Assembly (NCBI GenBank): GCA_025361485.1
Contig: JANYLA010000116.1
Coordinates: 1-37,749 of the forward strand
DNA: 37,749 nt
Direction of reading: 5' to 3'
Source: Bacteroidales bacterium
Lineage (GTDB): Bacteria; Bacteroidota; Bacteroidia; Bacteroidales; Tenuifilaceae
Position numbers and translations under genes: made by a program. The notes below the pieces were generated by a model. The model made no database searches. It saw only the letters and a program-made list of their open reading frames with translations, and had not been told where the DNA came from. Within the stretch, counting starts at the first letter, position 1, and every line of letters begins with the position of its first letter. Of the stretch, positions 3,852 through 24,700 are shown in pieces.

Positions 3852-4498
3852 TGAGCAAGCATATTATCAATCTTATAAAGCAGGGCGAACACCAAACGCT
3901 CGATTTTAAGCACTCAATCACCGATTCGAAGAAGATTGCACGTTCGTTGGTAGCCTTCGCAAATACTCTTGGAGGAACATTGCTAATTGGGGTCAAGGAT
4001 AATGGCTCCATTGTAGGAATCGACACCGAGGAGGAGTATTATATGATTGAGGCCGCTGCCCAAATGTACAGCAAACCTGAAATACCATTTAAAGTCACAA
4101 AATGGAATATCAATGGCAAGACAATTCTCGAGGTTATAGTAAATCCAATCAAGCACAAGCCCGTTAAAGCTCCCGATAAGAATGGCGAATACAAGGCCTT
4201 TATTCGGGTAAACGATGAGAATATTGTGGCATCAGCAATTCAACTAAAGATTTGGAAAGCCGAGAGGCATCGGAAATCGATTAGGATGGTGCTATCGGAG
4301 AAGGAGAATGCTCTTTTCGATTATTTCAAAACAAATCCTAAAATTACCGTTGGGCAGTATAGCCGACTTGCATTTATATCGAGGATTGATGCAGAGAATA
4401 TACTTATTGACCTCACAGTTATTGGGCTGATTAAGCATTTTGCGAATCAGGATGAAGAGTACTTTTTGCCACAAAGGCACAAAGACACAAAAAAATAA
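3851..4498 (+). CDS. AlbA_2 (Schlafen-type) domain protein with winged-helix-like C-terminus
   Basis: A 215-residue putative DNA-binding regulator. Residues ~10-135 form an AlbA_2 domain (also called the Schlafen AlbA_2 or AAA_4 domain): TLDFKHSITDSKKIARSLVA, then FANTLGGTLLIGVKDNGSI, and RVNDENI. Residues ~140-205 resemble a winged helix (ALFDYFKTNPKITVGQYSRL and following). The start is GTG at 3851, whose G is the last base of the serpin TAG stop. This one-base overlap implies translational coupling. The last residues (LPQRHKDTKK) are encoded by a copy of a dispersed intergenic repeat, so the original C-terminus has probably been replaced. AlbA_2 proteins are usually annotated as predicted transcriptional regulators; control of the serpin is inference from the overlap only. 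Confidence 0.78.
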   Translation: MSKHIINLIKQGEHQTLDFKHSITDSKKIARSLVAFANTLGGTLLIGVKDNGSIVGIDTEEEYYMIEAAAQMYSKPEIPFKVTKWNINGKTILEVIVNPIKHKPVKAPDKNGEYKAFIRVNDENIVASAIQLKIWKAERHRKSIRMVLSEKENALFDYFKTNPKITVGQYSRLAFISRIDAENILIDLTVIGLIKHFANQDEEYFLPQRHKDTKK

Positions 4499-6883: not shown

Positions 6884-9800
6884 ATGAACAATCTTAAGGT
6901 TCGTAGCAAACTATTTTTCTTTGAAAATATCCATAGGAGGATATTTAGTCGTTCAAAGGAAATGATAAATATTTCGGGATTAACATCGAATATTAAGCAT
7001 GCTGTGCTATTAGCTATAGCTTTAATTGCTTTTTCTTCGGTATCGTTTGGTCAAGCTGTTGGGGATTATCAGACTAACGCAACGGGTGCATGGAACTGGA
7101 ATACTGTTGCAAACTGGCAACGATGTGTATCCGCAGGAACATGGGTTGGAGCAACCTCAACAGACTATCCAGGGCAATTAGCTGGAGCTGGAGCTGTAAC
7201 CATTTTAAACAACACTAACGTTACCTTGAATGTATCGCCGGCCAATGTGATTGGAACCCTAACAATAAATACTGGAGCAAATAACTCTTCGATAGTATTT
7301 TCGGGAGCAAACTCTTTAACAGTAACAGGGGCTACAACTATTAACGGTTCTGGAACCAATGCTATAAATAAATTCATTGATGTTGCTGCAGGAGCATTTA
7401 CAACTGCATCCATAAGCATGACCGATGGAGGTGGTGATACTCGTGATTGTTACCTGTCAATATCAACCGGTAGTGCAACCATATCTGGCGACATTACCAT
7501 GGCAGGAAGTAATTTAAGAAATTATATCCTTTTTAGTAATACAGGAATTGTAAATATTGGAGGAACTATCACTGGTGGAACAATTACGAGTACTGCAGGA
7601 GGTGGTGCTGCTGCACCAACATCAGGTACAATTAGCTACAATGGTGCTGGAGCACAAAATATTGGCAACTACGCATACTTCAACCTAGCCACGGCAACGG
7701 GTGGAATTAAAACGTTACCAAATGCAGCCATTGCTGTTGGGGGAACCCTTGCTGTAAACAATTCTACACTAGCTTTCACCAATGCTGCTGCTCAAGTTAT
7801 AACAGTTACAGGGAACCTATCGGGTAATGGCACAATCGATATGAGCTCAGGAAGTCAAACCCACACCTTAAACCTCGGGGGTGCAACGAATGCAATTGGA
7901 ACACTTACCACTGCGGCAGTTGCAAGTACAATTAACTATAATAGCGCTGGTGCTCAAACTGTTTTTGCTAGTCCAAATTACAGAAATCTTACAATATCCG
8001 TTGGAGGCACAAAGACTTTACAGGGAAATATTACGGTAAATAACGATTTAACGGTAAATACAAGCACACTAGATTTTGGGGGTACTTTAAAAACAGTTGA
8101 TGTTTTAGGTAACCTAAGCGGCTCAGGAACCATTAGCATGATAGGAGCGGGTATAGCGCATACCTTAAATCTGGGAGGTACGAATAATGCAATTACTACA
8201 TTTACTACAACAGCCGCATCTGGAAGTACCGTTAACTATAATCGTGCAGGAGATCAGCAGGTTTTTACAAGTATAAACTATCGAAACCTAACCATTAGTG
8301 TTAGCGGCATAAAAACCTTTCAAGGAGTTTCAACCGTCAACAACAATTTGAATGTATCGGGAGGAACTTTGAATCTTGGTACAGGAGCTTGGACTCATAC
8401 TATTACTGGAAATGCTCAGATAGATGGAACATTATCCTTTAATGGTGTTGGTGTAAAAACACTAAATATAACCGGGAATCTCAGTGGCGCAGGGATTCTT
8501 GATATGAGCACTTTAACTCATACACTAAATTTAGGAGGAGCAACCAATGCCATTGGAACACTTACTACAACAGCAGTTGCAAGCACAATTAACTATAATA
8601 GCGCTGGTGTTCAAACTGTTTTTGCTAGTCCAAATTACAGAAATCTTACAATATCTAATGGAGGAACTAAAACTTTGCAAGGTGATGCCACCATTGGAGG
8701 CAATTTAAATATTACTGCAGGCATTTTTGATTTAGGAGCAACGGCTACAGCAGTGAATATTACTGGCAATGCCACGATTACAGGAACATTAACGTTTGGA
8801 ATAATTGCAAAAATAGTTTCACTTACAGGTGATTTAAGCGGAGGCGGTTTTGTGCTCATGACAGGTGCTGGTCTTGCGCATACATTTAACCTAGGAGGTA
8901 CAAATAATGCCATTGCAACATTTACAACTACTGCATTATCGGGAAGTACTGTAAACTATAACAGGAATGGAGATCAGCAGGTTTTTGCAAGCGCTAACTA
9001 TCGAAATTTAACAATAAGCATTGGGGGTATTAAAACTTTTCAGGGAGCATCAACAATTAACAATGATCTGAACGTATCCGGAGGAACATTGAACCTTGGT
9101 GGTGTTGCTTATATCCATAATGTTTTAGGAAATGCTCAAATAGATGGAACATTATCCTTTAATGGTGTTGGTATAAAAACACTAAATGTAACCGGAAATC
9201 TCAGTGGCGCAGGAATTCTTGATATGAGCACTTTAACTCATACACTAAATTTAGGAGGAGCAAACAATGCAATTGGAACTTTGACAACAACAGCTGTAGC
9301 AAGTGTTATTAACTATAACCGTGCTGGAGCACAAACAGTATTTAGTAGCCCAAACTATCGTACCCTTACTATTTCTGGGGGTAATAACAAATCGCTTTTA
9401 GGAAATATTACAGTTGGTGGAACACTTACCCTTACCGCCGGATTCGTTCAACTTGGAAACTTTGACCTTACCATTGCCAATGGTGCAACGGCACCGGCAG
9501 GTGGCGTAACCAACATGGTAATTACAAATGGGACAGGGCAGTTAAAGAAAGTTTTCCCTGCAGGAGCCTCTGCATTTACATTTCCGGTTGGTGATTTAAC
9601 TGTATCTAATGATTATTCGCCAACAACAATTACGTATACTACAAACAGCACAATAAGAACAATAGGAGTTAAAGTAACCGATTCGCAACATCCAAGCGAT
9701 TTTACAATTACTGATTTTATTAGTAGATACTGGTCATTTACCGACGACCAAGCAGGAACCTATACCTACACCCCATCATTTTCTTATTCGGCAGCAGCTC

Positions 9801-12800
9801 CTACAGACCTAACAGGAACGTATGCAAACTTGCGTGTAAACCGTTGGGGCGGTTCATGGACACAGTATACTACAACAACAGCAGGTGCACCAACAATAGT
9901 TACAAGTGCAGTTGTAAGCGAAACAACAGGGCCATTAAATGGTGCTGACTTTACAGGTCGTGAAAACGGTCCAACAACCTATAACTGGAATCAAACAGGT
10001 GTAGTTGCTAACTGGACTACCCCATCGAACTGGACTCCAAGCAGGTTTTCCCCACAACCAACAGATATTCTAGTATTCGATAATAATGGTACAACAACGG
10101 CTACAAATGTTCCAACTCAAACCATAAATAGGTTAACTATTTCAAACACTTCGAATGTTACATTGCAATCAGCAGCAGCTGTTACATTAACAATAAATAA
10201 TGGAACAGGAACAGATTTAGTAATAAACCCTAGCACAGTTCTTTCCCTCGGAACAACGGTTAGTGTCACCTTGGCAGCAGGAGCAACAGCAACTGTTGAT
10301 GGAACTTTAACAGTGGGTACTGGAACTACTTATACAACGAACGGAGCATCAACCATAACAACGGTTGCAGGTACAGTAAACAACTCTGGAACTATTACCA
10401 GCACACTAACAGGGCTTATTTTCAATGCTAGTTCCATATACAACCACACCGGAAATGGTGGAGTAATTCCAACTGCTACTTGGAATACAACATCTACCAT
10501 TAATGTTACTGGGACAACCAATACAGCAGTAACCGGGTTAAATCAAACATTTGGAAACTTAAATTTTAACTGCTTAGCACTAACATCGTTTTCAACAGCA
10601 ACCTTAGGCGGAGCAACAATAGTTCAAGGTAATTTTTCTATCGCAGGAACCTCTGCCGCATTTAGATTTGTGCTACAGCTAGCTGGTCAAAACTTTACTG
10701 TAAATGGTACTACAAATATTAACGCTTTTGGTATTATTGATGACAACAATAATGCAGGTTTAAATACTTTTAATGGCGTTACTAATGTTAATGCAACTGG
10801 TTTATTCTCCGAAAACAATGCAGCAGGAGCCGGCTCAACTATTTTTATTGGAAATGTTAATATTTTAGCCAACGGAAGTTGGACAATAACATTAAACCCA
10901 GTATTAATTTTCAGAGGAGGGCTTACCTACAACGCTTCATCGTTTACCAGTGGAGGGGGAAATTATATATTTGACACCAACAACCAAAGTATTTCTGGTG
11001 GGCAGTCGCTTACTATAACAGGAAGCATTGTAACCACAGGCTTTACCCTTACCAACCAGAACACTGCAGGCTTAACCTGCGGAGCATTTATCTCAGGAAC
11101 AGGTAACTTTATTAATGGCGATGCCACCTATAACGCAATTCTTTACCTTACGGGAGGTGGAAACCCATTTAGCTTAGCAGGCACACTTACGTTAAATGCA
11201 AATCCAAATACGGTCAATTATGCTGCGGGGGTTGCCCAAACCATTGGTGCATATAACTTTTATAATCTTACTGCTAGTGGGGCTGGTACGAGAACCCTTG
11301 TTAATGGAGGTACAGTAGGCATTGCTGGTTTGTTTACACCAGTTGGGGCTTATGTTATTACAAATAATACCGTTGATTTCAACGGAACAATAGCACAAAA
11401 CATTCCTGCTTTTACTTTCAATAACCTTACTATTTCTGGTAATAGTACAAAAACATTATCTGGGAATGTGGCTGTTGGAGCTGCTGGCATTTTGAATTTA
11501 AATACGGCCATTCTTGAACTTGCCAATTTCAACTTAACCATAAGCAATAACGCTGTCGGTGCGATAACTGGAGCATTCGGTTCATCGAACATGATTTCGA
11601 CTAATGGAACAGGCTATTTGGTAAAAAACGCCGCAACCGGACAGCCTTTATTCCCCGTCGGTTCTGGAACTTATTACTCTCCTTTTACTCTTACAGCAAT
11701 TGCCCCAGTTGGAGGAACTGTAGGTGTTAGAGCGGTTACTCCTTTTCCGCTTCTTAACCCATCGTACATTAAGAAATACTGGGATATAACCAATAGCGTT
11801 GCAAGAACATCTGCAACAGCTACCTTTCAGTACGATGCTGCTGAGCTAAATGGGGCATCTCAAAGTATTGCCTACTCGCCCAATTCGGGAACAACCTGGC
11901 AAAACCCTCCAGCCTCAGGTCTTTCAAGTTTTGTTGGTAACTCATTTACAATAACAACTCATTTACAAAATATTCCATTAGGTGTTCCAAGCGCATTAAC
12001 CGGTTGGTGGACAATGGGAAATAGAACATTTTACTCATACCAAACTGGGGATTGGAGCACTGCAACAACTTGGACCTCAGATCCTAGCGGTACGCTACAA
12101 ATTGGCTCGACTATTCCAGGTTATAACGATAAGGTTGTGATACTTACTAGTCGTACAGTTACCATTTCGAGTCCTACCATAGCAACCCAAAATTTGGACA
12201 TTACCATAGATGCCGGAGGATTCCTTAACATGGGAACTTCATCGTTTACGAATCCATTGCTTGGACTACGCGGACAAGGAACATTGCAACTCGCTACTGC
12301 AAACCTCCCAACTGTAGCTCCAGTAGCCAATAATACTTTGGTCCTTAGCGGAGGTGGTACCGTTGAGTACAACAATACAGCAGACTTTACACTTCCTGTT
12401 CTTCAAACTAATTATAATAACCTTACCATAAATACTAGCGCCGGAATTATTGCAACCCAGTTCAACAACCTTACCCTTTCTGGTAACCTATACATAAAAC
12501 AGGGAATATTCCGTATTAACGATAATGCTTCAGTTGCTCGACGCGAAATTTCAATTTCTGGCAATGTTACTGTTGATGCTACAGGTGAAATAGCGGTTGG
12601 TACTGGTAATACCAATCAGGGGTCACCAAATACGCCTCCCTTTATGAACTACTACGATCAGGTATCACACCGGGTAGTCGTTTATGGTGACTTTACCAAT
12701 AGCGGTAAGGTTCGATTCACCAATCTTGCATTTCCCATTTATAATGTACGTGCAACAAATGGATATGCAACAGTTTATTTTCAAGGGCTTACAAACAACA

Positions 12801-15800
12801 CCCTTTCGTGTAATGGTCAAACCGATTTTTACAACTTGATACTCGATAAAGGAACAGACCAGACTTACAAACTAACTGTAAACCCATCTGCTTATGGTAA
12901 TTTTAGGTTATTTGGAGCAAATTATTCTGGTGGAGATCAAGTTGCACCAGCAACAGCCTCAAACCCCAATATCTATAAGGCTCTTTGGATTAGAAATGGC
13001 TCTCTTTATCTTACTGGTTTTACTGTAATCCCTTCTTTAACAGAGGGTACGGGAGGAGGACCACCAAATGGTGATTATTTTATTCCTGCCAACGGAGCGT
13101 TGGTTCTCGACAACCCTAACGTTATTGTGCTAGTTACAGCTGACGATTATCAAGAAGTAAATGCAGCCTACGGTGTTGCTGGTGGAACAGGCCAGGTTAA
13201 CGGCGTTTTAAATACCGGCAGTTTACAGGCACTTTCTTTATATGGAACTGTTCAGGTAAACGATGGTTATCTATCAACCCGAGAATCCGCTGGTATTGTT
13301 ACATGGAATGTTGCCTCGGGTCAGGTTGTTCTAAACGGTGGTGTAATTGATGCAAAACAGCTGCGTTCGGGCGGTGGTGGCGCAGGTAAATCATCCTATT
13401 TACAAAGTGGTGGTATGTTCATTCTTCGTGGTAGGTTCCAAAGAACTCCTACCGCATTCACAACTCCTACCGATTTATCGGACTACTCCATAACGACCCT
13501 TAATACGAGTAGAGTTTTAAGTACCATTGATGGAACCGTTGGAACATTTAGTCTTATCGATCCTAGTAACGTTTTCTCAATGACGGGTGGTACAATTCGG
13601 ATTTATGATGTTTGCGGCGGCGGAGGTCGTCTATTCGACGTATTCTCTTCCTCCGGAAACCAAAATGTAACTGGTGGTACGTTGGAAATAAACCCCATTA
13701 CAGGAACCGTTATAGCTGATGCTGCCACATGGCTTATGTCATCGTATGCTCCGCTGTACAACATTACCATTGATAGGCTCAGCAGTACTTCAATAGTGCA
13801 AAACAGTTCGAGCTATGCTGGTTATACAGCAAGCCCACTAGTGATTCTAAATAATTTAACCCTTAATACGGCTGTACTGAATGCTAATAGCCTGAATGTT
13901 AAAGTTGGAGGTAATTTCTCCGTTTCGCTTAACTCAACCTATACTCCAGGTACCAACATGACCATTTTCAACGGTTCAGGAGCACAATCATTATCGGTGA
14001 ATACCGCAGCTACACTTGCATTTAAAAAGTTTAAAGTCGATAAACCGGCAGGAACTGTTCTTACATTAGCCGGTACTCAACCGACTATTTCTGTGGCTGA
14101 CTCCTTGATGATAGTTAAGGGAACCTTAGCTGATGGTGGAAAAACTATTGACTTTGTTACATCGGGAACGACCACTACCTCATACATTTTTAATAGCGGA
14201 ATTCATTCAGGAGCAGGTAAAATAAGGCTTAGTGATGATGATCCTCAGGTGATTGACGGAGATGGATTAGGTATTTTTGGTAACTTTGAACTGAATAATA
14301 CCGATGCTCTTGCAGCACCTATTTCGCTAACTAGTAATATAACCTTAAACGGAGCACTAACCTTTTCACAACCTAAACTATTTAATATTAAGACTTACAA
14401 CCTTAAGTTGAATAGTACCGCCTCAATTGTTGGTGCCGATGCAACGCATTATATTCAAACCTCTGGTACGCTTGGTGATGGTGGTATAACTCGTGTTTAT
14501 CCAAATTCAACAGCTTTTATATTTCCTTTAGGCGCAGCATCAACAGGCCACGCACTACCTGCATATACACCAGCATCAATAGGATTTACTGGTGTTCCCA
14601 CTTACGGTTCAATCACAGTTAATCCAGTTGGTTATGAACACCCAACAACCACAACAAATGGTCGAAGTCTAACATACTTTTGGCGTGTAAAATCGAATGG
14701 ATTTACACTTGGTGCTGCAACAGTTACGCATCAATATACCTACAATCAGAATGATGTGGTAACAGGTGCATTAATCACAGAGGATGGCTATGTTCCTGCA
14801 CGTTACAATACATCAACTCTCAGCTGGACAAGAGGTTCAGCGCTAGATGTTGATGAAGCCGCAAATACAATAGGAGGAGTGTTCTTAACAGGTACAGGAT
14901 TTATCGATGGTGATTATACTGCTGGTGATGATACACCAACAAATCCTTTTGGCACCTCGATAATTTACTATAGCCGTATAAATGGGGCTTTGGCAGGAAA
15001 TGGACTTTGGAGCAATGTTAATACTTGGTCAACGGTAAGCCATACAGGACCTGCCGCTGCTGCTGTGCCTGGAATAAATGATATCGTTATAATTGGAGCA
15101 AAAGATTCTGTTTATCTTGCCACGGATAATACATGGCCGTATGATACGGATAATACAGAAGTGCCGACAAGAAGTTGTGCGAGTTTACAAATTGAAAAAG
15201 GTTCTGCTCTTGATATTGGCTATAATACAAACACCAACTTTGGAATGGTGCTAAGTCATGTAAACGGCAATGGAAATTTTAGGTTTACAACCTCATCTGC
15301 AGATCAAAGTACTTATATATTCCCTGCAGGTGACTTTACCGATTTTAACAAAAATTTAGGAACAACCGAAATCTACTCAACAAATCCGAATCCTGGAACA
15401 ACATATTGGTTACCAAATAATATTGCAACCTACGGGAACTTGATTTTATCACCATTAGGTGGTTCAAATATAATTTTCGGAAATACTAACCTTGAGATTT
15501 ATGGGAATTTGATTACTAGGGGTCAAAATGCCGACTCATGGTTCTGCCCAACATGGAATGTAAACTATCCCACTGCTCCTGCCGCTCGTATTGCAAAAAC
15601 CATTACAATAGACGGTAATCTTGATATTCAGGGGGGTGCACTAATTTGGTATGGAAATGCTGCAATTACTCAGAACGTCGTTGTTAATGGAGATGTTAAA
15701 GTTGCTCCAAACTCAGCAATTGATGTTTGGGCAGCGGCAACCAGCCAAAACTTTTCAATTGGCGGAAATCTTATAAATAATACTGTTGGCACAATTGCTG

Positions 15801-18800
15801 GTGGAACCTCTACCACACGTCAATGCGACTTTACACTTTTACCGGTAACATTTTTTGGGAATACCTCTACTTCAATTACCAATACAGTTAATAATCCAGT
15901 TACCATTTTTGATAGATTAACAGTTAATAAAGGATCGTCACAAGCAACAACCCTGACAATAAATATTGGTGGTACATTAACAACTCTAGTTGATAATTGG
16001 CTTACCCTACAAAACGGAACGTTAAAGTACATGCGGACAAATCCCAATAGCGATTTTACCATATCTCAGGGTACAGCATTTACCATACCCACCACATCCG
16101 GACTTTATATTGATTACTCCAATACAGGCAACCGAAACATCCTAATTGCCGATGCAGCTTCAGGCACAAACGACCTATTTCTTAATGGTAAGTTAACTCT
16201 TATTCGGGGTAATGTATATGTAGGCCCTATTGCAGCACCTAACAACGATAATGATATTGAATACTCAGGTGGTGGTTCTTCATCCATTGATGTTAGCGGA
16301 GGTCAATTGGTTGTTAATGGACAAATTCGTCGAAATGTATCATCAACTGTAGGAGTACTTAGCTACAACCAGACAGCCGGAAATGTTGTCATAAACGGTA
16401 ACAACCAGAATAGTTTGCGTGCTAAGCTAGAGGTTTGTAATGTGGCTAGTTCATTCAACATGTCCAACGGAACGCTTACCATTGTACGTGGTGGTGGAAC
16501 TACGTATGGCGATCTTTACTTACGTCCGGCAAGTGGCAGCGTAACAGGTGGAACGATTACATTTACCCAAGTCCCCACAGGTCTACCTGCAATACCATTA
16601 GCCGATGCAGATCAGGCCTACACCCTCGAAAGCAATATTGCTCTTAACCACCTAACCATTACCGGAAAAACAGCGGCCACAACAAGAACAGCTACAGTTA
16701 CTTTAGGTGTTAGTCCGCTTATAGTTAATGGTAACCTAACCTTAACCAATAATCGAAGTATTCTGATTTCAAATAATCGAGATATTACGATAAAGGGCGA
16801 TATGAGCAATACGGGAACCTATACTTATGGTACGAATACCACTACCTTTAGTGGAGGTGCTCAGGCTATAACTGGAACATCAGTAACTAATTTCTATGAC
16901 CTTGTGGTTTCACCGGTTACCTCGTTAACCCCCAGCAACAGCTTTACCGTTAATCGAAACCTTACCATTAATAGCGGCATTCTAACATTGACTAATAAAA
17001 ATGTCGCTCTTTTAGGAAATCTTGTTAACAACGGGACATATACCGATAATAATATAACTGGCGGTGTTAGCCTGACCGGATCTAGTATACAACAAATTAC
17101 TGGAACTGGATCGTACGGAAGACTTGAACTCAACAACAATACCGGAGCGAATCTCAATAATAGCATATCGTTACAAAACGACTTGGTTCTGACCCTTGGG
17201 ATATTGAATATTAATCAGTATGAGTTAACCCTTGGACAATCGAGCATTATTGGCGGTGCCCCGTTTAGCTTAACAAAAATGATTGTCTCCGATGGGGTTG
17301 CTACAAGCGAAGGACTACGAAAGTTTTTTGGTGTTATTGCTGCCCCAACCAATTTTACTTTTCCTGTTGGTGTTAGCGGAAAATACACTCCTGCTGCCTT
17401 TACTATTAATACAAATGCAACAGTTGGTTCTATAAATGTTATACCGATTAAAATGAACCACCCAGCGGTTGACGATCCATTAAATGTATTGAACTACTAT
17501 TGGAAAATAGAAAGTTCGGGGGTTTCGAACTTTGATGGAAAAATTGTTCTTCAATATTTATCCAGTGATGTACAAGTCACCGGGATTAATACAGAAGCTG
17601 ACTATGTTGCCGCTAAACTGCTAATTCCTGGAACGTACTGGAGCAAAGCGGCCCCAGGCTCAGGAACTGATAATGTTGATGAAACCCTTCATCAGATTAC
17701 TTTTAACTATTCTGCTGGAACAAATAATATCAGCGGAGACTATACTGCCGGGATTAATATTGCATTACCTGATGAGGTAGCCTCCTATAAATCGAATAAG
17801 AACGGAAATTGGTCCGACGAAACGATTTGGGATGCGATTGGTGCTTCACCCCCTTGCCCCATAGGTGGACCTAATGGGTTTAGTGTTATTGTTGATCATG
17901 ATGTAACCACAAATGTGAACTATTGTTTTGCTTACCAAACCACAATTAATGGAAAACTTAAAATAGTTTTCCCAACCTTTGGTCATAACCTGGGAACCGT
18001 AACCGGTTCAGGCACCCTCTATCTCGAAGGTGGTAATTTACCTGCTGGCACCTTCTACTCCTTCTTAGATTGTGCCACTGGAGGAACTCTAGAATACGGA
18101 GGGTCGGGTAATTATACCATTATTGCAAGTTTGTACAATTCTGTTCCAAATCTTTACTTTACAGGATCAGGTACAAGGACTCTGCCCAATAAAGATCTTA
18201 CAATTTGTAATCGCTTAAAGATTGATGGACCAGTCCTCGATAATAGTGTAAATAATAGGAAACTTACCATTCTGGGTACTATGGAGCGTTATACAACGGG
18301 TACATTCACCGCCGGATCTGGAGTAAATGCAATCGTTTCATTTGCGGGTTCTGCCTTACAAACTGTCGGAGGGCCAATGGGTAACTTCTCAGGTGCTAAT
18401 GGTTTTAATCACATGGAGATTAATAATAGCCTTGGATTAAACATCGGTAATGCTGGTGTTATTCAGCTTTCGGGGAATTTACTATTAACAAATGGTATTA
18501 TTAAAACTACCGCTACTAATCTATTATACCTTAATGGCCCTTCAACAGCAGTTCCTGCAGGTGGAAGCGCAACCTCTTTTGTGAATGGCCCCTTATATAA
18601 ATTTTTATTTTCTGGTTCAAGTTTTCTTTACCCAATTGGAAAAGGAGTCCAAAAGAGTCACAATTTTACTTTAACTAATACATCAGCAGGAAGTCTCAAC
18701 TGGTTAGCAGAGTATTTTTCCCCTAACCCAACCTATGCCTCATTAACGCTACCACTTGAAGCATCCAACACCAAAGAATACTGGAGTGTTAAGAATACTT

Positions 18801-20539
18801 CAGGAGCAAATACCGCCAAGGTTAAGATTGGGTGGGATCCGGCAAGCGATTTAACCCCAACCATGACTGTTAATGGTTTACCAGATATGCGAGTTGCCGA
18901 GTATAGCGCCGGCAGTTGGGTTGAAAAACTTTCGACAACAAGCGGAAATGTGAATACTGGAGATGTTGCAACAACAAATAATTTAACAATTTCTACAACA
19001 CCGATAAATTACACAACAGCAAGTGTTACTACTACAAAGCCAAAGGCTTCGTTAAATCCTTCGGGTCCAATTTGTGGAGCAGTTGGTATACCTGTTAGCT
19101 TTTCAACATTTATACCCATTGCTTTGCCATATACACTTGATTATACACTTGATGGTGTAGCTCAGCCAACTATAAATGTATTATCGTTACCATATACCCT
19201 TCCAACTCCAACACCCGGTGCTTACAAACTAACGAATTTTACTTACCATAATGTTCCTGATGTTGGTGTCGTTATTGGAGTGGTTAATCCAACCATTGTT
19301 AATGCATATGCTACCCCTCCAACAGCAAATGCGGGGCCCGACCAATCGTGGTGCTCCGTTTCAGGAACAACTTTAAATGGTAATGATCCTGATCCTTTGA
19401 ATGATCCAGATATTCTTTTTACCGGTCAATGGACAAAGGTTAGCGGTATTGGTGGTACAATTCTTACGCCAACAGCCTATAATAGTGGTTTTAATGGTAC
19501 TTTAGGTAATACCTATACATTAAGATGGACTGTAAGCAAAGCCACTTGTAGCTCTTACGATGATGTTGTTATTGCTTACAATGTTGCCGCTCAACGACCC
19601 TCAAACTTTACATCCGCTCCAACTCCTGTATGTCAGAGCAGCTTTGGAAAAATATATACAGTGCCCACAATTCCAGCCGCAACTTTCAACTGGAGCTATA
19701 GCGGTGATTTTGCAACCATTAATGGCATTAGCAATCCGCCAAGTGGCATAACAAATACCGTTAATGGTATAAGCAACTCAATAACTGTTGCGTACGGTGC
19801 TGCGGCAACTGGTGGTACAATGAGCGTTACAGCAACAAATGCATGTGGAACGAGTATTCCAAGAAGCATAATAGTTAGTGTTCTTACACAGTCGACCATA
19901 ACGTTGGGTGCAAATCCATCGGTGTGCCGAGGAGTAACCACAGCAAATCTTTCCTATAGCGCAACAACTGGTAGTCCCGATCAGTATAGCATTGTATTTA
20001 ATGCTGCTGCTACAGGTGCAGGTTTTGTAAATGTTACAAATGCCGCTCTTCCTGTAGGATCTATTTCAATCGTAGTTCCTGCTGCAGCACCGGTGGCAAC
20101 GTACAACGGAAATCTAACTGTTAGAAACGCAATTGCAGGGTGCGTTTCAGTAGTTTATCCAATTTCTATTACGGTTAAATCGATACCAGTCGCAACTATT
20201 TCGCTTAGCCCAATTCCAAATAGTTGCAATGCTGACCCTGTAACTATAACTTATACACTGTCGGGTGGAGTAAATTATGATTTTGATTTGAATAAAACAT
20301 ACTCTGTTACAACCACATTAATGGAGCATATTTCTACTCCCTTAGCGTCAGATACAAGAACAGATAATCCAATTTGGCTTGATCTTGGTTCAGGAAACAA
20401 CTCGGTTGTTTATACTTATACTATAATTAATCTAATGTCGAATGGTTGTGCCGGGGCGGATAAGAGCGCTTCGGTTGAAGTATGGAGAACACCAACTACC
20501 GGTACTCCAAACCATATTCCAAATAATCTTGGTTATTAG
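6884..20539 (+). CDS. Giant modular secreted protein with beta-solenoid-like repeats (4551 aa)
   Basis: A single uninterrupted frame of 13.7 kb. A charged N-terminal stretch of ~38 residues precedes a hydrophobic signal core (AVLLAIALIAFSSVSFGQA, 40-58). An alternative start is Met27 (nt 6962), which would give an ordinary signal peptide. The mature protein is very rich in Thr, Gly, Asn and Ser. It has about five consecutive super-modules. Each opens with a Trp motif (NWNTVANW near 70; YNWNQTGVVANW ~1032; TGDWSTATTW ~1720; GLWSNVNTW ~2705; NGNWSDETIW ~3640), continues with short repeated strands (NLTIS, GNLSG, TLNLGG types), and ends in a cap with FPVG, FPLG or YPIG (~890, 1590, 2546, 3492, 3916) followed by a YW motif. 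Residues ~4053-4551 are Ig/PKD-like domains, one with ANAGPDQSWC (~4147). It ends NHIPNNLGY with no T9SS tail. A surface adhesin or matrix role is inference. Confidence 0.85.
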   Translation: MNNLKVRSKLFFFENIHRRIFSRSKEMINISGLTSNIKHAVLLAIALIAFSSVSFGQAVGDYQTNATGAWNWNTVANWQRCVSAGTWVGATSTDYPGQLAGAGAVTILNNTNVTLNVSPANVIGTLTINTGANNSSIVFSGANSLTVTGATTINGSGTNAINKFIDVAAGAFTTASISMTDGGGDTRDCYLSISTGSATISGDITMAGSNLRNYILFSNTGIVNIGGTITGGTITSTAGGGAAAPTSGTISYNGAGAQNIGNYAYFNLATATGGIKTLPNAAIAVGGTLAVNNSTLAFTNAAAQVITVTGNLSGNGTIDMSSGSQTHTLNLGGATNAIGTLTTAAVASTINYNSAGAQTVFASPNYRNLTISVGGTKTLQGNITVNNDLTVNTSTLDFGGTLKTVDVLGNLSGSGTISMIGAGIAHTLNLGGTNNAITTFTTTAASGSTVNYNRAGDQQVFTSINYRNLTISVSGIKTFQGVSTVNNNLNVSGGTLNLGTGAWTHTITGNAQIDGTLSFNGVGVKTLNITGNLSGAGILDMSTLTHTLNLGGATNAIGTLTTTAVASTINYNSAGVQTVFASPNYRNLTISNGGTKTLQGDATIGGNLNITAGIFDLGATATAVNITGNATITGTLTFGIIAKIVSLTGDLSGGGFVLMTGAGLAHTFNLGGTNNAIATFTTTALSGSTVNYNRNGDQQVFASANYRNLTISIGGIKTFQGASTINNDLNVSGGTLNLGGVAYIHNVLGNAQIDGTLSFNGVGIKTLNVTGNLSGAGILDMSTLTHTLNLGGANNAIGTLTTTAVASVINYNRAGAQTVFSSPNYRTLTISGGNNKSLLGNITVGGTLTLTAGFVQLGNFDLTIANGATAPAGGVTNMVITNGTGQLKKVFPAGASAFTFPVGDLTVSNDYSPTTITYTTNSTIRTIGVKVTDSQHPSDFTITDFISRYWSFTDDQAGTYTYTPSFSYSAAAPTDLTGTYANLRVNRWGGSWTQYTTTTAGAPTIVTSAVVSETTGPLNGADFTGRENGPTTYNWNQTGVVANWTTPSNWTPSRFSPQPTDILVFDNNGTTTATNVPTQTINRLTISNTSNVTLQSAAAVTLTINNGTGTDLVINPSTVLSLGTTVSVTLAAGATATVDGTLTVGTGTTYTTNGASTITTVAGTVNNSGTITSTLTGLIFNASSIYNHTGNGGVIPTATWNTTSTINVTGTTNTAVTGLNQTFGNLNFNCLALTSFSTATLGGATIVQGNFSIAGTSAAFRFVLQLAGQNFTVNGTTNINAFGIIDDNNNAGLNTFNGVTNVNATGLFSENNAAGAGSTIFIGNVNILANGSWTITLNPVLIFRGGLTYNASSFTSGGGNYIFDTNNQSISGGQSLTITGSIVTTGFTLTNQNTAGLTCGAFISGTGNFINGDATYNAILYLTGGGNPFSLAGTLTLNANPNTVNYAAGVAQTIGAYNFYNLTASGAGTRTLVNGGTVGIAGLFTPVGAYVITNNTVDFNGTIAQNIPAFTFNNLTISGNSTKTLSGNVAVGAAGILNLNTAILELANFNLTISNNAVGAITGAFGSSNMISTNGTGYLVKNAATGQPLFPVGSGTYYSPFTLTAIAPVGGTVGVRAVTPFPLLNPSYIKKYWDITNSVARTSATATFQYDAAELNGASQSIAYSPNSGTTWQNPPASGLSSFVGNSFTITTHLQNIPLGVPSALTGWWTMGNRTFYSYQTGDWSTATTWTSDPSGTLQIGSTIPGYNDKVVILTSRTVTISSPTIATQNLDITIDAGGFLNMGTSSFTNPLLGLRGQGTLQLATANLPTVAPVANNTLVLSGGGTVEYNNTADFTLPVLQTNYNNLTINTSAGIIATQFNNLTLSGNLYIKQGIFRINDNASVARREISISGNVTVDATGEIAVGTGNTNQGSPNTPPFMNYYDQVSHRVVVYGDFTNSGKVRFTNLAFPIYNVRATNGYATVYFQGLTNNTLSCNGQTDFYNLILDKGTDQTYKLTVNPSAYGNFRLFGANYSGGDQVAPATASNPNIYKALWIRNGSLYLTGFTVIPSLTEGTGGGPPNGDYFIPANGALVLDNPNVIVLVTADDYQEVNAAYGVAGGTGQVNGVLNTGSLQALSLYGTVQVNDGYLSTRESAGIVTWNVASGQVVLNGGVIDAKQLRSGGGGAGKSSYLQSGGMFILRGRFQRTPTAFTTPTDLSDYSITTLNTSRVLSTIDGTVGTFSLIDPSNVFSMTGGTIRIYDVCGGGGRLFDVFSSSGNQNVTGGTLEINPITGTVIADAATWLMSSYAPLYNITIDRLSSTSIVQNSSSYAGYTASPLVILNNLTLNTAVLNANSLNVKVGGNFSVSLNSTYTPGTNMTIFNGSGAQSLSVNTAATLAFKKFKVDKPAGTVLTLAGTQPTISVADSLMIVKGTLADGGKTIDFVTSGTTTTSYIFNSGIHSGAGKIRLSDDDPQVIDGDGLGIFGNFELNNTDALAAPISLTSNITLNGALTFSQPKLFNIKTYNLKLNSTASIVGADATHYIQTSGTLGDGGITRVYPNSTAFIFPLGAASTGHALPAYTPASIGFTGVPTYGSITVNPVGYEHPTTTTNGRSLTYFWRVKSNGFTLGAATVTHQYTYNQNDVVTGALITEDGYVPARYNTSTLSWTRGSALDVDEAANTIGGVFLTGTGFIDGDYTAGDDTPTNPFGTSIIYYSRINGALAGNGLWSNVNTWSTVSHTGPAAAAVPGINDIVIIGAKDSVYLATDNTWPYDTDNTEVPTRSCASLQIEKGSALDIGYNTNTNFGMVLSHVNGNGNFRFTTSSADQSTYIFPAGDFTDFNKNLGTTEIYSTNPNPGTTYWLPNNIATYGNLILSPLGGSNIIFGNTNLEIYGNLITRGQNADSWFCPTWNVNYPTAPAARIAKTITIDGNLDIQGGALIWYGNAAITQNVVVNGDVKVAPNSAIDVWAAATSQNFSIGGNLINNTVGTIAGGTSTTRQCDFTLLPVTFFGNTSTSITNTVNNPVTIFDRLTVNKGSSQATTLTINIGGTLTTLVDNWLTLQNGTLKYMRTNPNSDFTISQGTAFTIPTTSGLYIDYSNTGNRNILIADAASGTNDLFLNGKLTLIRGNVYVGPIAAPNNDNDIEYSGGGSSSIDVSGGQLVVNGQIRRNVSSTVGVLSYNQTAGNVVINGNNQNSLRAKLEVCNVASSFNMSNGTLTIVRGGGTTYGDLYLRPASGSVTGGTITFTQVPTGLPAIPLADADQAYTLESNIALNHLTITGKTAATTRTATVTLGVSPLIVNGNLTLTNNRSILISNNRDITIKGDMSNTGTYTYGTNTTTFSGGAQAITGTSVTNFYDLVVSPVTSLTPSNSFTVNRNLTINSGILTLTNKNVALLGNLVNNGTYTDNNITGGVSLTGSSIQQITGTGSYGRLELNNNTGANLNNSISLQNDLVLTLGILNINQYELTLGQSSIIGGAPFSLTKMIVSDGVATSEGLRKFFGVIAAPTNFTFPVGVSGKYTPAAFTINTNATVGSINVIPIKMNHPAVDDPLNVLNYYWKIESSGVSNFDGKIVLQYLSSDVQVTGINTEADYVAAKLLIPGTYWSKAAPGSGTDNVDETLHQITFNYSAGTNNISGDYTAGINIALPDEVASYKSNKNGNWSDETIWDAIGASPPCPIGGPNGFSVIVDHDVTTNVNYCFAYQTTINGKLKIVFPTFGHNLGTVTGSGTLYLEGGNLPAGTFYSFLDCATGGTLEYGGSGNYTIIASLYNSVPNLYFTGSGTRTLPNKDLTICNRLKIDGPVLDNSVNNRKLTILGTMERYTTGTFTAGSGVNAIVSFAGSALQTVGGPMGNFSGANGFNHMEINNSLGLNIGNAGVIQLSGNLLLTNGIIKTTATNLLYLNGPSTAVPAGGSATSFVNGPLYKFLFSGSSFLYPIGKGVQKSHNFTLTNTSAGSLNWLAEYFSPNPTYASLTLPLEASNTKEYWSVKNTSGANTAKVKIGWDPASDLTPTMTVNGLPDMRVAEYSAGSWVEKLSTTSGNVNTGDVATTNNLTISTTPINYTTASVTTTKPKASLNPSGPICGAVGIPVSFSTFIPIALPYTLDYTLDGVAQPTINVLSLPYTLPTPTPGAYKLTNFTYHNVPDVGVVIGVVNPTIVNAYATPPTANAGPDQSWCSVSGTTLNGNDPDPLNDPDILFTGQWTKVSGIGGTILTPTAYNSGFNGTLGNTYTLRWTVSKATCSSYDDVVIAYNVAAQRPSNFTSAPTPVCQSSFGKIYTVPTIPAATFNWSYSGDFATINGISNPPSGITNTVNGISNSITVAYGAAATGGTMSVTATNACGTSIPRSIIVSVLTQSTITLGANPSVCRGVTTANLSYSATTGSPDQYSIVFNAAATGAGFVNVTNAALPVGSISIVVPAAAPVATYNGNLTVRNAIAGCVSVVYPISITVKSIPVATISLSPIPNSCNADPVTITYTLSGGVNYDFDLNKTYSVTTTLMEHISTPLASDTRTDNPIWLDLGSGNNSVVYTYTIINLMSNGCAGADKSASVEVWRTPTTGTPNHIPNNLGY
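7931..9380 (+). repeat. Near-identical tandem repeats inside the giant gene
   Basis: Within the first super-module the sequence alternates two unit types, recognisable by the NYRNLTIS motif, near 7972, 8273, 8630, 8993 and 9350. A higher-order unit of exactly 720 nt (240 codons) is repeated: 8411-8550 and 9131-9270 differ at only about 6 of 140 bases. Another pair, 7931-7998 and 8588-8655 (offset 657 nt), differs at a single base. Such identity at third codon positions indicates recent duplication or gene conversion. Confidence 0.88.
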
Positions 20540-21777: not shown

Positions 21778-24700
21778 ATGATAAAAAAGTTTACCTGCTT
21801 CCTAATATTTTTTATTCCAGCAATTTGCATCTCACAGGGAACCTATAATTTTGAATCAGGCAGCCTATCTGGATGGACACAAGTGCCCAATACGCATTGG
21901 GCTGCATCTTCAGCCTCTCCGCTAAATGGAAGTTATTCATTAAGGCATACCTATGACAATACAGCAAGTGCTACAGATCGAATATCGATTCCGCTACCCT
22001 CGTGGAATCCAAATAACGGTAACATAACTTGGCAGGTAAAAGTTCGGCATGGCTATCCACCATCATCTTCCAATCGTTGGTGGATTTATCTTATGTCCGA
22101 TAAGGATGCCAGCCAAATGCAACCTTCAGGTGGAACATGCAATGGCTATGCAATTGGAGTAAACCTTACAGGCTCTGACGACTTACTTAAGCTCTGGAAA
22201 ATAGTCAATGGAATACCCCAAATTATTTTAGCATCAACACTAAACTGGCAAACCCAAATAACACCTTCTGGAATTGGAGCAATAGAGATTGAACGCTCAA
22301 AGAATGGAAGCTTTACTCTAAGAGCATCTACATCTGGTTCATTTTCAGCACTAACAAATTATGGCATCGTTACAGACATTACTTTTAACAATTTCTCTTT
22401 CTTTGGAATATGCTATAGCTACACATCAACAGGTGATTTATTATTATGGGTGGATGATATTTCTGTCAGCTACAATCCCAATGATATCACATCTGAAGTT
22501 TTAAGCCCTACAACTCAAATCGGAGCAGGAAATATTAGTTCGACCTTGAATAGTTCAGCATCGGCTGTTGATGTAATGAAGTTCATGATTAAGGACAATG
22601 CCACAAGCGATATTCTGCCTACAAAGGTCAAAACGCTTGAAATAAAAAGAGGGCCTTCAGCCAATGGCGCAAGCTGGGGTAACTCAATCGGTGGTGTTAA
22701 GCTAAGAGATGAATCAGAAGAAGTATCGATACTTAACCAAACCATTAGTGCCGATAAAATTACGCTCATAGTAGATTCAACTACAATGACCATTCCAAAT
22801 GGTCAAGCAAAAGAGTATACGCTAAGCCTTTACCTAAAACCAAATAATCTGGTTGATGGATCAACGCTTAAATTTTTAATTGATTCTGTTAATCATGGAT
22901 TTGATGCAGGGCTTTCCGGGTCAGACTTAGCCAGCACTTTTGCTAGAAAAATTCATTCAAATGAATTTAAAATAGATGTTTTAGCCACCGATCTTAGAGT
23001 AACTCAACAACCAATCGGAATTAGCAAGAACAAACCCTTTATAATTTCTGTTGGTGGTGCTGATAATGCTGGTAATATCGATAAGGAGTTTGGCAATGAT
23101 ATTACCTTATCATTATTGCAAGGAAATGGATTGCTTACATCAGCAGGAGGATTAACAAAAACACCTACTACTGGGATTTCGAGTTGGAGCGATTTGCAGT
23201 ATAGTTCAAGTGGAACGCTAAAAATCCTTGCAACAAGCAATGGTATAAATCCAATTCAGACCAATACCATAAATGTACTTAACGATTCCACATCAGCTGT
23301 AGGTCTTGGATTAAGTCAGCCCGCTGCGATTGGAATTTCATCATTAAAAACTTTCCCTGCGTCGGCAGTGGAAGCGCTAAGGTTTCGAGTTAATGACATG
23401 GGCGAAACCGATGGGTTACCCACAATCGTAAAAGATATCAAAATAAGCAGAGCCGAAATTGCCGATGCAGCCTCTTTAACCAAGGTTATTGGCGGTGTTT
23501 TGGTAAAAGTAAATGGCATTCCTGTTGGGATCTCCGAACCAGATATCAAGACAAACTATTTCACATTTACCATTAGCGAAAACGGCTTGGTTATACCCAA
23601 TGGCGGGTTTATTGATGTTAGTGTTTCAATATACCTAAATGAATCGGGGTTAACCGATAACCAAAAAATTCAGCTAAAGGTCGATGCCTCAAATCATGGA
23701 TTTACAGCCTATCCCACCGGATCAAAGTTTAACCCAACTTTTCCATTGCAAGTCATCTCCAATATTTTTTGGGTTGATGTGGTTGCTACTCAGCTTAAAT
23801 TCGCATCAATCCCAACGAGGGTTGGAGTTCTACAGCCTTTCAATATAATACTTAACGCTACTGATTTGAATGGTAATACCGACAAGGATTTCGCAGGCTC
23901 TGTTACACTTTCGCGACTTACGGGTAACGGAAATTTGGTAATTCCATCGGGTTCAACAATGCCTATTGTACAAGGAATAAGTACATATAATGCATTGACC
24001 TATAGTATTCCCGAAAAATTCTCGCTGCTTGCCTCGTGCCCAACACTTAACAACATTGCATCGCCATCGATAACCTGTGGCGACTCCGATGGAGGAATTG
24101 TAGCAATAGCCTCATCAGCCGATACTGTTTTAGTAAACAGCACATCAGCTTCAGCTCAAAATGCTGTCGAGGTAATGACGTTAAATATTTTTGATGCTGG
24201 GAGTACCGATGAATTGCCGCTCATTCCATCAAAAATCAATCTGTTTCTTTTCGATCCTACAAAAGCAGAACAGCTGAATAGTCAGATAGGTGGGTTTGTG
24301 ATTAAAGCCGACAACACCATTATCGATATTGAATCATACTCGTTAAACAATGGTGTTTTTGAAATAATACCTAGGGCAGGTAGTTTGGTTATTGCTGATA
24401 ATGATACGGTTGAACTATCTATCTCGATTTATTTGAATAAAAGTAATATCGCCGATAATTTCCCTTTCCGGTTTTATATACCAGCAGCCAATCATGGATG
24501 GATATCCTCCTCAACGGGAACTGGTTTTGCAAACAATTTCAATGCTGCTGTTTATGGCCCTGAATGCAGCATGAAGGTTTTAGCAACAAGTCTTAAATTT
24601 ACGGAAGTCCCTTTTTCAATCTTCCCATCACATCAATTCCCTGTTAAAGTTTGTGCGGCTGATGCTCTTGGGAATATCGATACTGACTTTACCGATCAGC

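What the first reader, a model, noticed from the sequence alone, without database searches (positions are those of the whole stretch)
6884..20539. 4551-residue surface protein made of five repeating super-modules
Five times in order, a Trp motif of the type NW..(T)W starts a block, solenoid-like Thr/Gly/Asn repeats follow, and a cap with FPVG/FPLG/YPIG plus a YW motif closes it. This regular grammar of entry, solenoid and cap suggests a rod assembled from duplicated segments. I know no named family that describes the complete unit.
Basis: partly seen in the sequence, partly recalled or inferred. Interest (0 to 1): 0.65.

Follow-up and report, generated by a model that had tools for sequence, protein, structure and literature searches.

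The report
Giant rod with shared C-terminal tag
A giant exported rod protein of an environmental Bacteroidales bacterium really is built of five related modules, but the bigger surprise is its last 15 residues, a short tag that it shares with quite different exported proteins and that may be an apparently undescribed address label for export to, or attachment at, the cell surface.

Summary
The 4551-aa ORF (6884-20539) has five Trp 'entry' segments and five FPxG/YW 'caps' where stated; left out in turn, all ten beat 1000 shuffles (cap 5 barely). One module (M5) is predicted as one confident unit, beta-helix plus beta-sandwich cap (pLDDT 91.7). The modules are old: M3-M5 are colinear with modules of relatives' rods; M1 is an extra N-terminal one.

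P0001 matches no known T9SS signal; it ends in a tail, PTTGTPNHIPNNLGY. The consensus PxTGPxYHIPNxFx closes 26 of 26 complete rods examined in its family (probably Tenuifilaceae) and 0 of 8 from other families, six of which carry type A signals. The tail also ends other exported proteins, above all an Ig-like protein encoded with a type-B-signal protein and a PorP/SprF shuttle. Tail variants agree between protein classes within families (p = 3e-5). No NCBIfam model matches it, and no open PMC paper holds its core letters.

Best reading: a short C-terminal export/anchoring tag served by a PorP-type T9SS shuttle; inferred, not shown.

The parts
6884..20539 (+). 4551-aa exported rod protein P0001
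   Evidence: single open ORF; no Pfam/NCBIfam hit for the whole protein at E<=0.1
6962..7054 (+). N-terminal signal-peptide-like stretch (hydrophobic, ends SFGQ); the true start may be the internal ATG at 6962
   Evidence: read by eye from the translation; no signal-peptide program was available
7052..9973 (+). module 1: entry (7052-7321), solenoid, cap 1 (9497-9973); extra N-terminal module relative to related rods
   Evidence: internal DNA repeats 657/720 nt apart between 7858 and 9402
9974..12031 (+). module 2: entry (9965-10255), solenoid, cap 2 (11573-12031)
   Evidence: 48-55% identity over the module to the N-terminal module of two same-genus rods, partial matches in the other nine
12032..14965 (+). 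module 3: entry (12014-12268), solenoid, cap 3 (14432-14938)
   Evidence: 49-56% identity over about 1000 aa in 8 of 11 rods compared, 28-33% in the other 3
14966..17785 (+). module 4: entry (14969-15247), solenoid, cap 4 (17258-17764)
   Evidence: 50-68% identity in 8 of 11 rods, 32-35% in 3
17786..19033 (+). module 5 (shortest): entry (17771-17986), solenoid, cap 5 (18557-19033)
   Evidence: AlphaFold2 model of 17762-19042 with 22 sequences, pLDDT 91.7, pTM 0.86; beta-helix and beta-sandwich look-alikes
19034..20491 (+). Ig/PKD-like C-terminal region (PKD_6 match at about 19610-19870)
   Evidence: PF19408, E 4.7e-6, 27.3 bits against cut-off 25
20492..20536 (+). C-terminal tail PTTGTPNHIPNNLGY, member of the PxTGPxYHIPNxFx tag family (model region 20465-20536)
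   Evidence: (E 6.1e-12, but it is one of the model's rows)

Best explanation
P0001 is a very long exported, probably surface-held rod made of five old modules, each a Trp-motif-started beta-helix closed by a beta-sandwich cap (structure predicted for one module), followed by Ig/PKD-like domains. It matches none of the known type IX secretion (T9SS) C-terminal domains. Instead it ends in a short tag, consensus PxTGPxYHIPNxFx-COOH, which it shares with other rods, with an Ig-like protein of about 300-460 aa and with a 1064-aa repeat protein of the same genome. The tag most likely works as a C-terminal address label: it is recognised by a dedicated T9SS-linked outer-membrane device, most likely the PorP/SprF-type shuttle and the small type-B-signal protein encoded together with the Ig-like protein, so that rods and Ig-like protein are exported through, or anchored at, the same site. 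Shown by computation: the modules, the tag and its strict C-terminal position, its sharing between different proteins, its family-wise agreement between them, the operon, the type A signal at the same place in rods of other families, and the presence of T9SS genes. Inferred: that the tag is read by the PorP/SprF or type B partner, that export is by T9SS, and that the rod stays at the surface.
For: Tail at the exact C-terminus: 28 of 28 matches (E<1e-3) among 1363 ORFs of the window and the 32 cap-selected loci, 0 elsewhere (12 of the 27 rows of the tail model come from these sequences). 26 of 26 cap-bearing ORFs over 900 aa with their own stop in family f1 have it, 0 of 8 in other families; 6 of those 8 were tested and all 6 have a type A CTD over the curated cut-off, whereas the last 120 aa of 4 tail-bearing rods (P0001 included) match nothing in NCBIfam at E<=0.1. 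The three f1 genomes without a tail match (G016, G020, G025) also gave no cap. The tail ends other exported proteins: 20 of the 29 weaker matches (E 1e-9 to 1.5e-3) were fetched and all 20 end at or within one residue of the stop (signal peptides judged by eye). The Ig-like gene is followed by a TIGR04131 protein and a TIGR03519 PorP/SprF in the four loci checked by HMM (one type B score, 31.1, under the cut-off of 35). With profiles made from five f1 loci the order Ig-type B-PorP is complete in 20 of 22 loci (those five included), the other two being cut by contig ends. Rods stand directly upstream of that operon in 5 loci: L176, L181, L182, L183, L184. In the Ig-like family the tail has a mean column identity of 0.71 against 0.32 for the body and 0.52 for the best body window. 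Tails of rods and others agree better with Ig-like tails of the same family than of other families: mean distance 0.51 against 0.64, 3 in 100,000 label permutations as low. In the Ig-like model the tail follows the last strand and has no secondary structure. Own genome: 25 type A CTDs, SprA_N matches, 6 PorP/SprF, 4 type B CTDs over cut-off. Published: type B substrates commonly have, and two were shown to need, the PorP/SprF protein encoded directly downstream (PMC12618676, introduction read), and PG1035 and SprB were found bound to PorP and SprF, suggested to anchor them (PMC9143113, abstract and passages).
Against: No experiment and no complex model links the tag to PorP/SprF or to the type B protein. 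P0001's own neighbours are a TonB-like gene and a semialdehyde dehydrogenase gene; the operon is on another contig. In G136 (L212) two tailed Ig-like genes and the type B gene have no PorP next to them. Known T9SS signals are folded domains of about 40-235 aa; 15-20 residues without a fold would be unusually small. PorPs of the same group also stand beside type B regions fused to long proteins without a tail (G033, G143, G040), so this PorP does not need the tail. The agreement test fails to pair two of nine families (f38, f42) and treats families as independent. The tail is confined to 26 of 247 sampled genomes of the order and was not found in the other 391 of 392 genomes sampled over the phylum (E<=1e-4), so it is a lineage-specific device. 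P0001's own tail deviates from the consensus (TGTPNHIPN for TGPxYHIPN).
Confidence: 0.5

Rival explanations
1. The tag is an assembly peptide, not an export signal: rods and Ig-like protein are brought outside by some other route and the tag is the piece by which they plug into each other or into the type B protein (docking or donor-strand-like), building one surface structure.
For: Tag on rods and on the Ig-like protein of the same operon; the agreement of tails would also follow from a shared docking partner; the tail is an unstructured extension after the last strand in the model.
Against: It leaves the rods without any recognisable T9SS signal, although rods of other families carry one at the same place; the tag is also on proteins outside the operon such as the 1064-aa and 467-aa repeat proteins.
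Confidence: 0.25
2. The tag is a processing or covalent attachment site: the PxT-G core is cut by a sortase-like enzyme and the protein is joined to a surface polymer, as PorU does for type A substrates.
For: Near-invariant P-x-T-G; CTD cleavage at a PT/GI consensus is reported in Prevotella intermedia (PMC11969387, passages).
Against: The conserved part continues nearly to the stop (HIPNxFx); there is no membrane stretch and no basic end as in LPXTG signals (by eye); [quoted passage not shown] No candidate enzyme was looked for.
Confidence: 0.12
3. Ordinary adhesin with no special signal: the tail is only the conserved end of the last Ig-like domain, kept for folding, and the rod is one of many giant beta proteins of Bacteroidota.
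For: The tail follows Ig/PKD-like sequence in the rods and in the Ig-like protein, and perhaps also in the 1064-aa protein (by eye); rods with such caps are common (32 of 60 genomes, own included).
Against: The tail also ends a 467-aa protein whose repeats run up to it without an Ig-like domain in sight (by eye); in the Ig-like family the tail is much more conserved than the domain before it and lies outside its strands; family-specific tail forms are shared between different proteins.
Confidence: 0.13

Closest known systems
T9SS type B substrates with a PorP/SprF shuttle (SprB-SprF, PG1035-PorP)
   Same: exported proteins tied to a PorP/SprF gene and a TIGR04131 protein in one operon; rods just upstream in five other genomes
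   Different: rods and Ig-like protein match no type B CTD but carry a tag of about 15-20 aa; the type B CTD sits on a separate protein of 336-417 aa in the complete loci
Rods with the same caps and a type A CTD in other Bacteroidales families (e.g. L058, L066, L067)
   Same: entry/cap modules and giant size
   Different: end with TIGR04183 over cut-off, 6 of 6 tested; no tail
Short CTDs of Prevotella intermedia
   Same: unusually short C-terminal T9SS signals
   Different: about 40-60 aa, three predicted strands, type A motifs B, D, E with a conserved basic residue (PMC11969387, passages); by eye the tail has none of these
Beta-helix adhesins and lyase-like proteins (yeast Awp1/Awp3b, Cthe_2159, phage tailspikes)
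   Same: similar arrangement of the solenoid part of module 5, Z 8-10
   Different: 9-12% identity; Foldseek itself gives no match at E<=0.001; no relation claimed

Membership tests
T9SS type A CTD substrate | TIGR04183 domain at the C-terminus | tested here: not met
   0 NCBIfam families for the whole protein, for 17771-20536 and for the last 120 aa, E<=0.1
T9SS type B CTD substrate | TIGR04131/CHU_C domain at the C-terminus | tested here: not met
   same; Pfam
T9SS type B CTD substrate | porP/sprF-like gene directly downstream | tested here: not met
   the gene downstream of P0001 is a semialdehyde dehydrogenase on the other strand; in the tailed Ig-like protein's operon on contig C98 a PorP/SprF lies two genes downstream
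T9SS type C (ChiA) substrate | NF033708 domain | tested here: not met
   last 120 aa, no match at E<=0.1
T9SS substrate in general | genome encodes a T9SS | tested here: met
   SprA_N E 6.9e-129, 25 type A CTDs, 6 PorP/SprF; other core genes not searched
T9SS substrate in general | export to the surface depends on T9SS | not testable with these tools
   needs a mutant
Short CTD of P. intermedia type | motifs B, D (GxY) and E (basic residue) within about 40-60 aa | tested here: not met
   by eye on the tails, no profile was built
LPXTG sortase substrate | LPXTG, then a hydrophobic stretch and a basic end | tested here: not met
   PxTG present, but only about 7-13 residues without a membrane stretch remain to the stop (by eye)
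Right-handed parallel beta-helix proteins | stacked parallel coils | tested here: inconclusive
   confident all-beta model, VIA Z 8-10 to beta-helix chains, but 0 Foldseek matches at E<=0.001
ZU5/GAIN/FIIND-type domain (cap) | that beta-sandwich fold | tested here: inconclusive
   model residues about 250-427 match NLRP1/CARD8 FIIND, GAIN and ankyrin ZU5 chains at Z 5.3-7.9, within the range of common arrangements

The most novel reading that the evidence does not exclude
PxTGPxYHIPNxFx-COOH is a new class of T9SS C-terminal signal, smaller than those in the papers read, that works in trans: tagged giant rods and an Ig-like protein have no folded CTD of their own and are taken out and held by a small type B CTD adaptor bound to its PorP/SprF shuttle, so that one shuttle serves several cargoes of thousands of residues.
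Probability: 0.3. Interest if true: 0.82.

Novelty: new variant of a known kind. Interest (0 to 1): 0.6.

Why it matters
T9SS substrates are found by their C-terminal domains (types A, B, C). If a tag of about 15 residues does the same job in some ten families of Bacteroidales, a set of exported giants is being missed by annotation, and the question of how PorP/SprF shuttles choose cargo gets a minimal, mutable test peptide. The natural swap (type A CTD against tag on the same rod architecture) is a ready-made comparison.

Tried and rejected
Considered and rejected: (1) A truncated gene or frameshift that lost a CTD: only 55 bases separate the stop from the end of the opposite gene, and 26 of 26 complete rods of the family end the same way. 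(2) A conserved downstream partner of the rod itself: none was evident in the f1 loci (judged from gene positions and sizes only). (3) The type B protein's N-terminal region as a specific marker of tail genomes: its model matches 90 of 119 genomes, probably because it resembles common Ig/PKD repeats; only its best 10 listed hits, 205 bits or more, are full-length operon proteins, nine of tail-positive genomes and one of G068, which has a diverged tail. (4) A clean PorP tree: operon PorPs lie mostly together but not as one clade (2 changes needed), partly because of a long-branch row; one of the own genome's six PorPs (L205) did not enter the tree. (5) Sequence search of PDB with module 5: E 0.23 and worse. 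(6) Pfam on module 5 homologues: 0 of 22 members match at E<=0.01. (7) Literature: no paper of the open PMC library contains TGPIYHIPN, PETGPQYH or YHIPNN; the other T9SS searches listed none that describes the tail, judged from listings and the passages read; (Tenuifilaceae) was seen as a listing only. (8) Self-BLAST of P0001 returned no rows and was replaced by leave-one-out profiles. (9) (plasmid BLAST of a neighbour gene) only served to see that the genome is Bacteroidota-like.

Results against the reading that are easy to miss: G136 has no PorP beside its Ig-like and type B genes (L212); L213 (G062) has a second type B gene without tail or PorP beside it; f38 and f42 rods are closer to Ig-like tails of another family. 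On checking, my own note of 11 top type B hits was wrong (it is 10), and the G136 case was added; I left the odds as they were.

Rows dropped: 14 rows were dropped (9 short ORFs under 200 aa caught by the loose pattern, 3 type B CTD proteins likewise caught, and L233 and L235, whose protein class was uncertain although the tails look real), and L126 was left out as a second copy of L044's Ig-like gene; 97 were kept. For the 500-base pieces L218-L237 the class was set by hand from the open-frame lengths, and L120 and the 521-aa ORF of L061 were set to 'other' by hand. The pattern missed L191's upstream ORF (SDTGPEYLIPNSIHE, seen) and the L225 piece. 9 of the 29 weaker matches were not fetched.

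Full report
What is there. The window is a whole contig (37,749 b, G000:C126) of a 3.49-Mb genome in 173 contigs, 97% complete. A relative of the same family group (G022) has a contig of 69,927 b, the length of a Perlabentimonas gracilis contig that carries the same tail; NCBI places that species in Tenuifilaceae, Bacteroidales. I therefore read family f1 as probably Tenuifilaceae. ORF 6884-20539 encodes 4551 aa rich in Thr, Gly and Asn. Pfam and NCBIfam give nothing for the whole protein at E<=0.1; only the C-terminal piece alone has a PKD_6 match. Neighbours are a TonB C-terminal protein upstream, a semialdehyde dehydrogenase downstream on the other strand, and a second protein of 1890 aa with LTD and Big_5 domains.

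The five modules. Profiles of the five caps and five entries find each other: with each segment left out in turn, all ten exceed 1000 shuffles of themselves, cap 5 by 0.1 bit only and entries 2, 4 and 5 by 1.7-2.6 bits. Module 5 with 21 homologues is predicted with pLDDT 91.7 and pTM 0.86, all beta. Foldseek finds no PDB match at E<=0.001; the second look by VIA-align lists beta-helix proteins (yeast Awp adhesins Z 9-10, a lyase-like protein Z 9.3, phage tailspikes) for the solenoid and FIIND, GAIN and ZU5 chains (Z 5.3-7.9) for the cap. The latter lie in the range of common arrangements, so the cap's relation is only a lead. The other four modules were not modelled.

History of the rod. BLAST of the modules against 11 rods of relatives (chosen from those) shows that M3, M4 and M5 each have a colinear counterpart (49-75% identity in 8 of 11, 28-36% in the other 3), M2 matches the N-terminal module over its whole length in two same-genus rods and partly in the others, and M1 matches N-terminal solenoids in a mixed way. 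P0001 is thus best read as a four-module rod with one more N-terminal module, inside which DNA repeats 657 and 720 nt apart (65-85% identical) show later growth. Caps occur in 32 of 60 genomes, own included, at E<=1e-4.

The tail. The complete rods of family f1 end alike, typically VxVxKxPETGPQYHIPNxFGx; P0001 ends WRTPTTGTPNHIPNNLGY. Among 1363 ORFs in the window and the 32 loci fetched by their caps, all 28 tail matches (E<1e-3) end within 3 residues of the stop codon and none lies elsewhere; 26 of 26 cap-bearing ORFs over 900 aa with a stop in f1 have the tail and 0 of 8 of other families do (12 of the 27 rows of the tail model come from these sequences; two more f1 ORFs ran off their locus). 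Of those 8, one ends in masked sequence, one looks cut short, and the other 6 all carry a type A CTD over the curated cut-off, while four tailed rods tested, P0001 among them, match no NCBIfam model in their last 120 aa. So, at the same place in the same architecture, one group has the classical T9SS signal and the other has the tail.

The tail is not only on rods. Searched with 24 rod tails, 26 of 60 genomes match at E<=0.05, 24 of them in f1 (of 27 f1 genomes) and two marginally (E about 0.04) elsewhere; the three f1 genomes without a match also lack caps. Of the 29 weaker matches (E 1e-9 to 1.5e-3) I fetched 20; all 20 end at or within one residue of the stop, in proteins with signal-like N-termini (by eye). 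Fifteen were aligned as one Ig-like family, two of 461-462 aa look like longer relatives, two are 1064-aa repeat proteins (own genome: G000:C117) and one is a 467-aa repeat protein. In the Ig-like family the tail columns have a mean identity of 0.71, the body 0.32, and the best body window of the same size 0.52. The AlphaFold2 model of the own genome's Ig-like protein (pLDDT 85.5, pTM 0.78) puts the tail after the last strand, without secondary structure; Foldseek's matches are Ig-fold chains, with low overall TM-scores.

The operon. In the own genome and in G019, G007 and G022 the Ig-like gene is followed by a TIGR04131 protein (E 5.8e-15, 5.2e-16, 3.5e-15; in G022 1.9e-7, under the cut-off) and a TIGR03519 PorP/SprF (E 6.6e-72 to 1.8e-65). 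With profiles built from five f1 loci, 20 of 22 loci with the Ig-like gene show all three in this order, those five included and with extra genes between in L184; the other two are cut by the contig end (these loci were chosen for tail or Ig matches). Two further loci came in by other routes: G068 has the order Ig (cut)-type B-PorP, and G136 has two tailed Ig-like genes and the type B gene but no PorP beside them. In L176, L181, L182, L183 and L184 a cap-bearing rod with a tail stands just upstream on the same strand; L185, L191 and L193 have a cut ORF with a tail-like end there. In the f1 loci seen the rods are elsewhere. Rods and this operon are thus physically linked in other families.

Distribution. 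With 27 mixed tails, 26 of 247 genomes of the order match at E<=1e-3, in ten families, and in a sample of 392 genomes of the phylum only the own genome at E<=1e-4. The Ig-like protein is found in 12 of 119 genomes of the order; 11 of these 12 also have tail matches, and the twelfth (G068, where the Ig match lies in a 4018-aa ORF) has the operon with a diverged tail, PTPTTSPIQHLKNL. The Ig model contains the tail columns, so the two are not fully independent.

Tails agree within families. In f88 9 of 10 tails listed, on rods, Ig-like and other proteins, end N[NS]xAK; in f91 8 of 8 have Trp two residues after the conserved Asn; in f37 and f61 most stop at or one residue after that Asn or its neighbour. 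Averaged over nine families with both kinds, rod-or-other tails are closer to Ig-like tails of the same family (0.51) than of other families (0.64); 3 of 100,000 permutations of family labels are as low. Seven of nine families' rods have their own family's Ig-like tails as the nearest; f38 and f42 do not. Two loci that split before these families and drift independently would not do this. A shared reader of the tail, or gene conversion, would.

Mechanism. T9SS is encoded (SprA_N, 25 type A CTDs, 4 type B CTDs over cut-off, 6 PorP/SprF). [quoted passage not shown]), and PorP-like proteins bind type B substrates and are suggested to anchor them (PMC9143113, abstract and passages). Putting this together, I think it most likely that the tail is the address label by which rods and Ig-like protein are handled by this operon's shuttle or its type B protein. 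That step is inferred. In three genomes (G033, G143, G040) a type B region like the operon's protein is the end of a long protein next to a PorP of the same group, without a tail (15 Ig_7 stretches in the G033 protein). This fits the idea that the separate type B protein serves in trans for tailed proteins, but it also shows that this PorP does not need the tail.

Known or new. Published T9SS signals are type A, B and C domains (PMC10202324, passages) and the short CTDs of Prevotella intermedia (PMC11969387, passages). The tail matches none of the NCBIfam models, by eye lacks the motifs of the short CTDs, and its core letters are in no open PMC paper. No NCBIfam model matches any of 27 Ig-like members at E<=0.01. 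I call it a new variant of a known kind: probably a T9SS-linked C-terminal tag, new in form, with the rod itself a new but ordinary giant adhesin-like protein. All functional statements await experiments.

Noticed in passing
window 2679-4498: A clear serpin (PF00079, E 1.2e-116) directly followed by a Schlafen/AlbA_2 gene, in a bacterial genome.
   Followed up: no
window 21778-27450: 1890-aa protein with lamin-tail (LTD) and Big_5 domains and an end that looks like a T9SS signal but stays under the CHU_C cut-off and matches no NCBIfam model at E<=0.1.
   Followed up: no
window 7858-9402: Direct DNA repeats (168- and 300-nt copies, 657/720 nt apart, 65-85% alike) inside module 1, a sign of later lengthening.
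   Followed up: partly
L130:7131-13475 and L180:4068-10440: A tailed 1064/1070-aa protein sits beside two FGE-sulfatase/SUMF1-like proteins of 502-516 aa in both the own genome and G198; T9SS ring proteins PorK/GldK are, from memory, of that fold.
   Followed up: partly
L209, L216, L217: In G033, G143 and G040 a region like the operon's type B protein ends a long protein next to a PorP of the same group (15 Ig_7 stretches in L209; the other two not scanned).
   Followed up: partly
L210:10138-13999: In G091 two ORFs end in related but shorter forms, LPVTSPIQHN and LPVTQPIVHSQ, so the tail family may reach further than the model finds.
   Followed up: no
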